In this document: one piece after another, positions 38,781 to 41,895 of the stretch
How the letters are laid out: each line of letters starts with the position of its first letter
Numbering within the stretch: the first letter of the stretch is position 1
Assembly: GCA_001873065.1 (NCBI GenBank)
Contig: MNYM01000010.1
Coordinates: 1 to 64,000 of the forward strand
Length of the DNA stretch: 64,000 nt
Direction: 5' to 3'
DNA from: Flavobacteriaceae bacterium CG2_30_31_66
GTDB taxonomy: Bacteria; Bacteroidota; Bacteroidia; Flavobacteriales; Flavobacteriaceae
Made by a program: the position numbers and the translations under genes
Notes under the pieces: generated by a model
Databases searched by the model: none
Told to the model about the DNA's origin: nothing
Seen by the model: only the letters and a program-made list of their open reading frames with translations

Positions 38781-39569
38781 ATGAACACAGAAAAAGTAGC
38801 AGATTACATCAAAAATTGGTTGGGAAATTATGCAAAAAATGCGAAAGTAAATGGCTTTGTGATTGGTGTTTCTGGAGGTATTGACTCCGCAGTAACCTCA
38901 ACTTTGTGTGCAAAAACGGGCATGCCATTATTGTGTGTTGAAATGCCTATTCATCAGGCAGAAAATCAGGTAAATAGAGCTCAAAATCATATTGATTGGC
39001 TTCAAAAAAGCCATACAAATGTTTCAAAAGTGGCCGTAAATTTGACACCTGTTTTTGATAGTATGGTTGCGTCATTTCCTAAAGTGGATGATGAAGAAAG
39101 CCGTTTTATGTCATTAGCAAACACAAGAGCGCGTTTGCGGATGACAACATTATATTATTTTGCATCATTGCACGGTTATTTGGTTGCTGGCACAGGAAAT
39201 AAAGTGGAAGATTTCGGGGTTGGATTTTATACAAAATATGGTGATGGAGGTGTTGATTTAAGTCCGATTGCTGATTTGATGAAATCGGAAGTGTATATGA
39301 TTGCGAAACATTATGGTATAAACCAAGATATTATTGAAGCTTCACCAACTGACGGTTTGTGGGGAGATCACAGAACTGATGAGGACCAAATTGGAGCTTC
39401 ATATGACGAGCTAGAATGGGCAATGAACATGCAAGAAAAAGACAAAACAAGTGATGATTTTTCTGGACGAGAGTTAGAAGTTTTTAAGATTTATATAAAA
39501 TTTAATTGTGCAAACAAACATAAAATGTTGCCTATTCCTATATGTGAAATTCCTAAAGATTTAAAGTGA
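38781..39569 (+). CDS. nadE: NAD+ synthetase (ammonia-dependent type)
   Basis: A 262-residue cytosolic enzyme that amidates nicotinic acid adenine dinucleotide to NAD. The PP-loop SGGIDSA is at about 31-37. It also shows NTRARLRMTTLYYFA and GTGNKVEDFGVGFYTKYGDGGVDLSPI, whose core motifs bind NaAD and magnesium. There is no glutaminase domain, so ammonia is the expected nitrogen donor. A strong terminator follows. Divergent from gldB-gldC. Confidence 0.97.
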   Translation: MNTEKVADYIKNWLGNYAKNAKVNGFVIGVSGGIDSAVTSTLCAKTGMPLLCVEMPIHQAENQVNRAQNHIDWLQKSHTNVSKVAVNLTPVFDSMVASFPKVDDEESRFMSLANTRARLRMTTLYYFASLHGYLVAGTGNKVEDFGVGFYTKYGDGGVDLSPIADLMKSEVYMIAKHYGINQDIIEASPTDGLWGDHRTDEDQIGASYDELEWAMNMQEKDKTSDDFSGRELEVFKIYIKFNCANKHKMLPIPICEIPKDLK

Positions 39570-39576
39570 TTTGATT

Positions 39577-39615
39577 AAAAAAATCCCTTCATTTTATCAA
39601 TGAAGGGATTTTTTT
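39577..39615. terminator. Bidirectional terminator of nadE and the 43-codon ORF
   Basis: A 17-bp perfect stem, with ATCCCTTCATT and its complement, and a 5-nt loop. T runs lie on both strands. It starts 8 bp after nadE, and its other edge touches the stop codon of the small minus-strand ORF. Confidence 0.9.
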
Positions 39616-39746
39616 TATAGGAGGTTTGCTGCAATCATCAATCTTTTTATTTTCAAATAAGTACGTCTTTTAGAGCCGTTAGTAATTTCAAAAGGTAAAA
39701 AAATAAACAATTGAGCGATTTTTAAGATTTGGAATACTTTTTTCAT
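39615..39746 (-). CDS. Possible 43-residue basic hydrophobic miniprotein
   Basis: ATG at 39746 opens a 43-codon frame ending in TAA at 39615-39617. The product starts MKKVFQILKIAQLFIFLPFE and ends KIKRLMIAANLL, with a short hydrophobic segment and nine Lys/Arg. What supports a real transcript is the setting: a TTG-N19-TACATTTG promoter (39776-39805) 30 bp upstream and a strong terminator right at the stop codon. It could code for a small membrane peptide (type I toxin-like or regulatory), or the unit may be a small RNA of about 190 nt with an accidental ORF. No homologue is recognised. Confidence 0.5.
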   Translation of the reverse strand: MKKVFQILKIAQLFIFLPFEITNGSKRRTYLKIKRLMIAANLL

Positions 39747-39775
39747 AATTAACAATTTAAGTTCTTTTTCGAGTC

Positions 39776-39805
39776 CAAATGTATTAAAAAAATTAGACCA
39801 AACAA
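39776..39805 (-). promoter_or_regulatory. Promoter of the small unit: TTG-N19-TACATTTG
   Basis: On the minus strand, TTG (39803-39805) is separated by exactly 19 bp from TACATTTG (39776-39783). This is the best fit to the Bacteroidota housekeeping consensus that I saw in the window. It points at the 43-codon ORF. Confidence 0.6.
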
Positions 39806-39945
39806 CAGGAAAAACACCCTTTTTACGTTTTTATAATATTCCTAGGAGATGATTTTTTAGGAAATTTTTTCGGTTTTTTTAGTAAAATAAGGGTTTTACG
39901 AGCGTCCTAAACCTTTTTTTTGTAAGTAATATTTTGAAAAAAAAT

Positions 39946-41895
39946 CTAAACTACCCTATTTAATTTTTCAGAAAGCCGAATTCTTAATGAATTGTAGTTC
40001 ATTATTTCCTCGATTTCGTCATTTGAATATTCTTTTTCTTTGATTGATTTTTCTTTAAGAAGTTTGTCAATCAATATTCTTCTAATGTTGTAAATAGCAT
40101 CTGTAACTGCTTTCATCAACACTTCTTTAGTTTCTGTTACAAAAATATTTTTTCGTTCCCATTGACTAAGTTGGTATTTTTCTTCATCCATCAAAATAGA
40201 AGTCACTGTTGATGAAATAGTAGGATTAATGTGATTGATTAATTGGTCGAGTTCTAATTTTTGGAAATTGTTCAGCTGAAAGATAATTTCGTTGTAAATT
40301 TCTTGAAAAACCGAATTTGTAAAATGAATTTCGTCATCATGCAATTGCAGATAGATTTCCGTTGAAACCGAATTTTTATATTTCTTGGGCGTTTTTATTT
40401 CTTTGCCATTTTCATCAATATGAATAATTTCGTCCATGAAATCAACTTCTTCATTGCCATAAAGCAGCAAGAGTTTGATGATTTCACGCTCTAAAATTTC
40501 GAGTTGGTCAATTTCTTTTAACTGAATGTCTTGTCTTTTTACAACCTCGAAAGTTTTTTTCTCAGCTTGGTACTTTTTAGATTCTTCTGTATTGTTTTTG
40601 GACAGTAATTGCGCCAATTCGCTAAACAAAATACGTTCAGAAATTTCCATAATTCTGGCACATTCCTGCACGTAAACTTCGCGCTGAATCGCATCAGGAA
40701 TTTTAGAAATACTCGCGACAATATCACGAATCAAGCCTGCTTTTTTTACAGGATCATTCTGAGTATCTTCCAATAAAAGTGACACCTTGAAATTGATAAA
40801 ATCTTGAGCTGCAGTTTCCAAAAAGGCTTGTAACTCGCTATCAGAATGCGATTTTGCAAAACTATCAGGATCTTCGCCATTAGGGAATTGCACCACTTTC
40901 ACGTTCATTCCTTGCTCTAAAATCAAATCAATTCCACGAATAGAAGCCCTGATTCCTGCTGCATCCCCATCAAAAAGAACGGTAATATTTTTGGTTAATC
41001 TGCTAATCAACCGTATTTGATCGGGCGTTAACGCAGTCCCTGAAGAAGCCACCACATTTTCAATGCCTGATTGATGAAACGAAATCACATCTGTATATCC
41101 TTCTACCAAAAAACAATTGTCTTGCTTGGCAATTTCTTTCTTAGCTTGAAAAATTCCGTACAACACTTTTCCTTTGTGATAGATATCACTCTCTGGAGAA
41201 TTCAGGTATTTTGCTGCTTTTTTATCATTGGTCAAAATTCTGCCACCAAAACCCAATGTTCTTCCAGACATGGAATGGATTGGAAATATGACACGACCTT
41301 TAAAACGGTCAAATTGTTTGTTATCTTTAACAATAGTAAGTCCTGTAGATTCTAAATATTTTAGTTGATAACCTTTGGCAATGGCTGCATTTGTGAAATG
41401 GTCCCATTCATCAAGGCAATATCCTAAATCGAATTTTTCAATGGTTTCGTCACGAAAACCACGCTCTTTAAAATAACTGAGTCCGATTGCTTTTCCTTGG
41501 TTGGTTTTGAGCATGGTGTTGTGAAAAAAATCTTTCGCAAAATCCGAAACCACAAACATGCTTTCACGTTCGTTGACAAGTTCTTTTTCTTGATTGGTTT
41601 GCTCTGTTTCCTCAATCTCAATATTATATTTATTTGCCAACCATTTGATGGCTTCAGGATACGTATAATGCTCATGTTCCATTAAAAATGAAATGGCATT
41701 GCCTCCTTTTCCCGTTGAGAAATCTTTCCAAATTTGTTTTACTGGAGAGACCATAAACGAAGGTGATTTTTCGTCGGTAAATGGGCTTAATCCTTTGAAA
41801 TTGCTTCCTGCTTTTTTGAGTTGCACGAATTCGCCAACAACTTCTTCTACTCTTGCAGCTTCAAAAACGCGATCTATGGTACTTCTGGAAATCAT
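39946..41895 (-). CDS. dnaG: DNA primase, zinc ligands replaced
   Basis: A 649-residue primase that makes RNA primers at the fork with DnaB helicase. The N-terminal zinc-ribbon domain is recognisable (FKGLSPFTDEKSPSFMVSP), but the four expected Cys/His ligands read Ser37, Thr40, Asp58 and Thr61, so it cannot bind zinc in the usual way. The RNA polymerase core is normal: EGYTDVISFHQSG, SSGTALT, and the Toprim DGDAAG. The C-terminal helicase-interaction region follows after about residue 430. It lies downstream of clpX beyond a terminator and probably has its own promoter. Confidence 0.96.
   Translation of the reverse strand: MISRSTIDRVFEAARVEEVVGEFVQLKKAGSNFKGLSPFTDEKSPSFMVSPVKQIWKDFSTGKGGNAISFLMEHEHYTYPEAIKWLANKYNIEIEETEQTNQEKELVNERESMFVVSDFAKDFFHNTMLKTNQGKAIGLSYFKERGFRDETIEKFDLGYCLDEWDHFTNAAIAKGYQLKYLESTGLTIVKDNKQFDRFKGRVIFPIHSMSGRTLGFGGRILTNDKKAAKYLNSPESDIYHKGKVLYGIFQAKKEIAKQDNCFLVEGYTDVISFHQSGIENVVASSGTALTPDQIRLISRLTKNITVLFDGDAAGIRASIRGIDLILEQGMNVKVVQFPNGEDPDSFAKSHSDSELQAFLETAAQDFINFKVSLLLEDTQNDPVKKAGLIRDIVASISKIPDAIQREVYVQECARIMEISERILFSELAQLLSKNNTEESKKYQAEKKTFEVVKRQDIQLKEIDQLEILEREIIKLLLLYGNEEVDFMDEIIHIDENGKEIKTPKKYKNSVSTEIYLQLHDDEIHFTNSVFQEIYNEIIFQLNNFQKLELDQLINHINPTISSTVTSILMDEEKYQLSQWERKNIFVTETKEVLMKAVTDAIYNIRRILIDKLLKEKSIKEKEYSNDEIEEIMNYNSLRIRLSEKLNRVV

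What the first reader, a model, noticed from the sequence alone, without database searches (positions are those of the whole stretch)
39577..39805. Self-contained mini-gene: consensus promoter, 43-codon ORF, terminator at its stop
On the minus strand between dnaG and nadE, TTG-N19-TACATTTG (39776-39805) is the closest match to the Bacteroidota promoter consensus I saw. A 43-codon ORF starts 30 bp further (39746), and a 17-bp terminator stem begins at its stop. The product is basic with a short hydrophobic stretch. This may be an unannotated membrane miniprotein or a small RNA of about 190 nt.
Basis: partly seen in the sequence, partly recalled or inferred. Interest (0 to 1): 0.72.

Follow-up and report, generated by a model that had tools for sequence, protein, structure and literature searches.

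The report
Conserved 43-residue protein beside dnaG
A tiny gene between dnaG and nadE is conserved as a 43-residue, strongly basic protein across most species of its flavobacterial genus; the protein is predicted to fold into two helices and would likely act by sitting on the cell membrane and tuning a partner protein there, but its function is untested.

Summary
The ORF (39746-39615, minus) belongs to a small-protein family found in 135 of 166 genomes of the window's genus (named members: Polaribacter, Tenacibaculum), nearly always between dnaG and nadE, and 43 residues long in 190 of 201 members read. Selection acts on the protein (median dN/dS 0.15). The RNA reading fails: without the terminator the transcript folds little better than shuffles (z -0.86), and the CDS hairpin shows no covariation. 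A mark that was missed: a box, AGGGTGTTTTTCCTG (39806-39820), upstream of the promoter, which in relatives also precedes putative lipoprotein genes and a candidate small RNA. No usable Pfam, NCBIfam, PHROGs, PADLOC or PDB relative was found. Best guess: a cationic two-helix microprotein on the inner membrane face that modulates a membrane partner, working like YjiS or MgrB but related to neither. Function is untested; other genera carry a response-regulator gene at this place.

The parts
39615..39746 (-). CDS of the 43-residue protein (ATG 39746, stop TAA 39617-39615)
   Evidence: family of 201 members in 169 of 170 loci read; purifying selection
39776..39783 (-). -7 promoter element TACATTTG (TAnnTTTG, primary sigma factor type)
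   Evidence: -7-like element in 81 of 150 distinct upstream regions vs 18.8 shuffled; consensus from PMC9723704 section 15 part 1 and PMC7366714 passages
39803..39805 (-). TTG proposed as -33 half; not conserved in relatives
   Evidence: TTTG near -33 in 6 of 81
39806..39820 (-). Conserved upstream box AGGGTGTTTTTCCTG, imperfect palindrome, predicted regulator binding site
   Evidence: 30 of 150 upstream regions match a strict form vs mean 0.13 in single-base shuffles; box 33 sites in 27 of 97 genus genomes vs 8 for the reversed pattern
39577..39615 (.). Intrinsic terminator, 17-bp stem, T/A tracts on both sides, so it could serve both this gene and convergent nadE
   Evidence: by eye, other stems in the same place in many relatives with a gap
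39747..39770 (-). Predicted 5' leader, A-rich, A at -3 of the start codon
   Evidence: A at -3 favours initiation in F. johnsoniae, PMC6847099 passages; transcription start itself is predicted
38781..39569 (+). nadE, convergent neighbour
   Evidence: Pfam NAD_synthase E 5.6e-48; homologues in 57 of 60 family genomes
39946..41895 (-). dnaG, upstream neighbour on the same strand
   Evidence: Pfam DNAG_N E 2.4e-37; dnaG and nadE both in the locus for 146 of 151 distinct member rows

Best explanation
The ORF belongs to a family of 43-residue, strongly basic proteins kept by purifying selection in this genus, and its product is predicted to fold into two helices and would likely act by lying on the inner face of the cytoplasmic membrane and modulating a membrane protein there. 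Shown: the ORF, its conservation and fixed length, its place between dnaG and nadE, the -7 element and the upstream box. Inferred: transcription from about 39770 to 39577, translation, a regulator binding the box, membrane attachment through the hydrophobic first helix (residues 2-21) with the basic second helix (26-39) facing the cytoplasm or binding the partner, and modulation of that partner in response to the signal read by the box. The coding claim alone I hold at about 0.97; the confidence below is for the whole mechanism.
For: Family in 135 of 166 same-genus genomes, 111 of 128 good-quality ones, own included; 190 of 201 members exactly 43 aa, 194 of 201 with ATG; 136 distinct CDSs, median dN/dS 0.151 over 1532 related pairs. 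Net charge +5 to +11, mean 8.3, in 128 distinct proteins; P18 in 128 of 128, and L13, L17, G24, I33, K34, M37, N41 each in over 120. AlphaFold2 with 84 sequences: helices 2-21 and 26-39, mean pLDDT 79, pTM 0.48. Promoter element and box conserved. More than one copy in 29 of 169 loci (duplicate fetches included); 7 of the 14 copies that I count as downstream of the main one carry another promoter type, (T/A)GTGAC, 14-15 nt, NNGTCT(A/T)A. The TGTGAC-N14 form was found at 6 places in 8 genomes (control 1): 3 at these copies, 3 elsewhere, upstream of a PID-CTERM protein and of two ORFs that look secreted by eye, which points to the cell envelope.
Against: No localisation, expression or phenotype data. 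The helix-1 moment of the mean profile is not above shuffles (0.34 vs 0.22, 14% reach it; helix 2 likewise), so in-plane binding against crossing the membrane is undecided. pTM is low and Foldseek found nothing at E <= 0.001. A basic second helix also fits binding of nucleic acid or ribosome. No partner gene was found: dnaG and nadE are the only neighbours that I checked. In the window's own genome loose copies of the box are no commoner than its reversed control (52 vs 61 at up to 3 mismatches).
Confidence: 0.45

Rival explanations
1. A basic small protein that binds RNA, DNA or the ribosome in the cytosol, with the second helix as the binding part.
For: Net charge about +8, K/R at positions 26-28, 32, 34, 35 in most members; a DUF1127 protein of Rhodobacter, similar in being small and basic, binds RNA (passages of PMC11707872).
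Against: The first 21 residues are hydrophobic and conserved, unusual for a purely nucleic-acid-binding peptide (judgement); no family match.
Confidence: 0.22
2. A hydrophobic toxin of a type I toxin-antitoxin pair, held back by an antisense RNA.
For: Small, hydrophobic plus basic, tandem copies, losses in some genomes.
Against: Kept at one place in most of the genus with strong constraint on the polar C-terminal half; on the plus strand no TAnnTTTG lies between 39045 and 40986, so no antisense promoter of the standard type; the co-boxed candidate sRNA shows no pairing with the mRNA beyond shuffles in 8 of 8 genomes tested.
Confidence: 0.1
3. A non-coding RNA of about 190 nt; the ORF is incidental.
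For: Whole transcript folds at z -4.23; CDSs fold slightly better than synonymous shuffles (mean z -0.76 over 60 of the 117 selected sequences); the window-derived hairpin pairs 70% of cells against 40-55% when slid, as a structure taken from one of the sequences tends to.
Against: z falls to -0.86 without the terminator; consensus fold energy zero; covariation 0.107 vs 0.109 shuffled and cells paired 70.2 vs 70.4% shuffled; no Rfam match at gathering scores; dN/dS 0.151.
Confidence: 0.03
4. A cis element for nadE or dnaG (leader peptide, convergent interference) whose peptide does not matter.
For: Tail-to-tail with nadE, 9-nt overlap in 62 of 145 distinct members.
Against: Amino-acid constraint along much of the length; the next gene on this side, nadE, is on the opposite strand; several genomes lack the gene with nadE and dnaG present.
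Confidence: 0.06

Closest known systems
YjiS and other DUF1127 small proteins (Salmonella, alpha-proteobacteria)
   Same: YjiS: 54 residues, basic second part, amphipathic first helix; it sits on the inner membrane face, and the sensor system SsrA/B is among its reported interaction candidates (passages of PMC11707872).
   Different: No DUF1127 match in 25 of 25 members scanned at E <= 0.1; lysine and arginine mixed rather than arginine-rich; other phylum.
Small membrane regulators such as MgrB (named in PMC11707872 passages) and MgtR (abstract start of PMC6813294 in a listing)
   Same: Small regulatory proteins acting on membrane proteins: the proposed way of working.
   Different: No sequence comparison made here beyond the family scans; partner unknown; the first helix here has polar residues within it.
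SM5 and SM6 promoters of Flavobacterium psychrophilum (PMC9723704, passages and section 15 part 1)
   Same: Many relatives have TATATTGC, which fits SM5 TAnnTTGY; the window has TACATTTG, which fits the primary consensus; several downstream paralogs have GCGTCT, which holds a CGT like the SM6 box.
   Different: Motif logos not held; match by letters only; other genus.
Genus-specific small protein families of the GMSC catalogue (PMC11364881 passages)
   Same: A genus-level conserved small protein without a known domain is a common kind: more than half of the families with three or more members are genus-specific.
   Different: Membership in the catalogue could not be looked up.

Membership tests
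Protein-coding gene | Purifying selection on amino acids | tested here: met
   Median dN/dS 0.151, 1532 non-independent pairs from 136 distinct CDSs; codon positions 32/17/51%
Protein-coding gene | Conserved frame and length in relatives | tested here: met
   190 of 201 members 43 aa
Protein-coding gene | Transcription and translation observed | not testable with these tools
   No RNA-seq or Ribo-seq held
Structured small RNA | Fold better than shuffles apart from the terminator | tested here: not met
   z -0.86, 41 of 200 shuffles fold as well
Structured small RNA | Compensatory changes | tested here: not met
   326 of 500 shuffles reach the covariation score, 40 sequences
Known RNA family | Rfam gathering score | tested here: not met
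   0 matches in the window
DUF1127 (PF06568, number recalled) | Pfam profile match | tested here: not met
   0 of 25 members at E <= 0.1; the only family listed is an unrelated viral one, 1 member, E 0.049
DUF1127 (PF06568, number recalled) | Peripheral inner-membrane location (YjiS) | not testable with these tools
   Needs fractionation
Type I toxin | Antisense RNA antitoxin | tested here: inconclusive
   No TAnnTTTG on the plus strand between 39045 and 40986; trans sRNA pairing not above shuffles in 8 genomes; other promoter types not searched
Type I toxin | Toxic on expression | not testable with these tools
   Needs an experiment
Bacteroidota primary-sigma promoter | TAnnTTTG at -7 | tested here: met
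   TACATTTG 39783-39776; -7-like element conserved
Bacteroidota primary-sigma promoter | TTTG near -33 | tested here: not met
   GTTG in the window; TTTG in 6 of 81 relatives. [quoted passage not shown] johnsoniae either
Single transmembrane protein | About 17-20 uninterrupted hydrophobic residues | tested here: inconclusive
   Best 17-residue mean 1.55 in the window, 1.78 on average over 190 members; polar residues at 6, 9, 12 in most

The most novel reading that the evidence does not exclude
A small regulon unknown so far in Polaribacter and Tenacibaculum: one regulator binding the GGTGTTTTTCC box switches a 43-residue membrane microprotein and an unannotated small RNA of about 60-70 nt together, and this pair took over where the clade lost a conserved response regulator; the tandem paralogs were then handed to an envelope-stress sigma factor.
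Probability: 0.2. Interest if true: 0.65.

Novelty: new member of a known kind. Interest (0 to 1): 0.4.

Why it matters
It gives a concrete small protein, present in most of its genus, with fixed length, fixed place and a conserved upstream box, ready for deletion and tagging in a cultivable laboratory Polaribacter strain. If the shared box holds up, it opens a regulon in this group of bacteria.

Tried and rejected
RNA reading: rejected. Family searches by Pfam, NCBIfam, PHROGs, PADLOC, PDB sequences and Foldseek: nothing usable (NCBIfam and PADLOC were given 3 and 2 members only). Origin from the antisense strand of the response-regulator gene of other genera: no trace in 29 loci (nhmmer best E 0.36). 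Weak family hit G345: a 25-residue match with a stop inside, left aside. Pairing between the co-boxed sRNA and the mini-gene mRNA: not above shuffles in 8 of 8 genomes. Wide regulon in the window's own genome: not seen. A strict form of the box, GTAAAANNNGGTRTTTNCCC, was found in 6 of 59 genomes, 5 of them at the mini-gene itself; the own genome has none of that form. One search used a wrong spacer (16-17) for the paralog promoter and gave 3 sites in 10 genomes against 1 control; it was repeated with 14. One search cut the minus-strand loci on the wrong side and was thrown away. One search's shuffles keep single-base content only. Member and tandem counts include the same genome fetched twice; the distinct counts are those. 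Paper searches for the gene: searches found no paper with all terms; the listings (8 of 1,331; 8 of 896) showed none on it; the library holds open-licence papers only.

Full report
What is there. It lies between dnaG (same strand, 39946-41895) and convergent nadE (38781-39569). The promoter pattern by itself is not unusual in this AT-rich window: 5 matches against 3.07 expected.

It is a gene family. A DNA search of 59 related genomes found strong matches (E <= 1e-18) in 10 genomes besides the own one, each overlapping the ORF. The 14 translations aligned are all 43 residues long without a gap. A profile search found the family in 135 of 166 genomes of the window's genus, own included, and in 111 of 128 of good quality. 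In a draw of 299 family genomes only the own genome, one same-genus genome and one weak broken match turned up. The genus as grouped by the tool holds Polaribacter and Tenacibaculum: the records are named Polaribacter or, for some MAGs, Flavobacteriaceae; one search names Tenacibaculum xiamenense and T. pacificus, and the latter's protein and contig length are those of G091. One protein is named Lutibacter sp. Hel_I_33_5; it is identical to that of G117 of the same genus. One search found 177 database proteins and listed 120, mostly unnamed or 'hypothetical protein' (one, P0082, bears the name AzlD), none of the 120 with a Pfam domain.

Length, place and selection. In 170 loci read (some genomes twice), 201 members were found in 169; 190 are 43 aa and 194 begin with ATG. 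Of 151 distinct member rows, 146 have both dnaG and nadE in the locus, one nadE only (L055) and four neither (L125, L052, L151, L135). Among 136 distinct CDSs the median dN/dS of 1532 pairs (70% identity or more, dS under 1.5) is 0.151, and over 7431 pairs substitutions fall on codon positions 1/2/3 as 95632/52436/151746; the pairs are not independent. P18 is invariant in 128 distinct proteins and several others nearly so.

Loss. Of the 31 genus genomes without a profile match, 17 were looked at through nadE (13 listed as without match and four that its list of matches lacks) and 16 had nadE. Two hold a divergent intact 43-aa ORF (L226, L229), one a clearly decayed copy (L234, nhmmer E 9e-11), one a weak remnant (L240, E 2e-4), and 12 no trace.

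Not an RNA. The full transcript folds at z -4.23, but the terminator does this: without it z is -0.86. On 40 sequences the window's CDS hairpin shows no covariation beyond shuffles, the consensus fold of 60 is empty, and single CDSs fold only slightly better than synonymous shuffles (mean z -0.76). That slight excess is unexplained.

Regulation. The -7 element is conserved (81 of 150 upstream regions against 18.8 shuffled); the -33 half is not (6 of 81). Many relatives have TATATTGC, which fits motif SM5 (TAnnTTGY) of F. psychrophilum (PMC9723704, section 15 part 1). A strict form is in 30 of 150 upstream regions against 0.13 in shuffles. The pattern RGGGTGTTTTTCCYR occurs 33 times in 27 of 97 genus genomes against 8 for the reversed pattern; 3 of the 33 are at mini-genes (places compared). 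Of the 30 sites read, one is the window's, 13 have an ORF of 100 codons or more within 260 nt, among them six that look like lipoproteins by eye (no Pfam match for the two tried) and one DUF4870 gene, and eight look like the candidate small RNA (two of these eight are among the 13); ten have neither. In the own genome there is one exact copy, here, one with a single mismatch before the candidate sRNA, and no excess of looser copies. A regulator is therefore inferred, not shown.

Terminator and neighbours. In 79 of 145 distinct members nadE does not overlap the gene; by eye most of these have a terminator of unrelated sequence in the gap. In 62 the last two codons and the stop overlap the end of nadE by 9 nt, and in 4 by another length. 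The terminator is thus not a fixed part of the gene. In other genera, 25 of 29 loci show dnaG, a response-regulator ORF and nadE; two more show regulator and nadE, one (L206) dnaG and nadE alone, one (L196) nadE only. The one regulator scanned has Pfam Response_reg and GerE domains, so it is of NarL/LuxR type. With that protein as query, one of 18 same-genus genomes gave a match at E 1e-30, a 33%-identical one (G014).

The protein. Net charge averages +8.3. AlphaFold2 gives helices 2-21 and 26-39 with mean pLDDT 79 and pTM 0.48; no solved structure matches well. Helix 1 is borderline for crossing the membrane. The closest likeness in working is YjiS, a 54-aa protein placed on the inner membrane face, by its authors probably through an amphipathic first helix, with membrane proteins among its interaction candidates (passages of PMC11707872); it is no relative by the tests run. 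I commit to a membrane-bound modulator as the likeliest mechanism, at 0.45, and to the coding gene at about 0.97.

Scores. A genus-specific small protein without known function is a common kind (PMC11364881 passages), so novelty is 'new member of a known kind' and interest 0.4; the shared box and candidate sRNA could raise it.

Noticed in passing
L287:1500 onward, i.e. G000:C6:33797-33812 in the window's own genome; also L257, L264, L270, L274, L277, L321: Candidate unannotated small RNA of about 60-70 nt with core TTAGGG(A/G)A(A/G)ATTGC (TTGGGAAAATTGC in the own genome) and an intrinsic terminator, preceded by a box like that of the mini-gene. Core pattern in 7 of 97 genus genomes, control 0; 4 of these 7 have a box within 150 nt upstream and 3 do not, two of which look coding. 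No Rfam match in 8 loci.
   Followed up: partly
Second or third copies in L066, L054, L069, L084, L046, L051, L117: Downstream tandem paralogs have a different promoter, (T/A)GTGAC, 14-15 nt, NNGTCT(A/T)A, resembling an ECF sigma promoter; the N14 form also lies upstream of a PID-CTERM protein (L250) and of ORFs that look secreted (L251, L252); 6 sites in 8 genomes against 1 control.
   Followed up: partly
L189-L217, between dnaG and nadE: Other Flavobacteriaceae genera carry a response regulator with a LuxR-type output domain beside nadE in 27 of 29 loci (one scanned by Pfam); it is gone from this place in the Polaribacter/Tenacibaculum loci read, and 17 of 18 genomes searched have no match at E 1e-30.
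   Followed up: partly
62 of 145 distinct members, e.g. L017, L100, L138: Mini-gene and nadE overlap tail to tail by 9 nt; in L017 Leu-Leu-stop of one is antisense to Leu-Lys-stop of the other.
   Followed up: partly
L003 and L004 CDS, middle; reverse frames listed: The codons for LPFEISKG form a near-perfect palindrome (CCTTTTGAAATTTCAAAAGG and variants), so the antisense strand encodes a look-alike peptide; no conserved fold was seen.
   Followed up: partly
L144:5694-5825: A further family copy about 3.7 kb from the dnaG-nadE copy in the same genome, outside the usual place.
   Followed up: no
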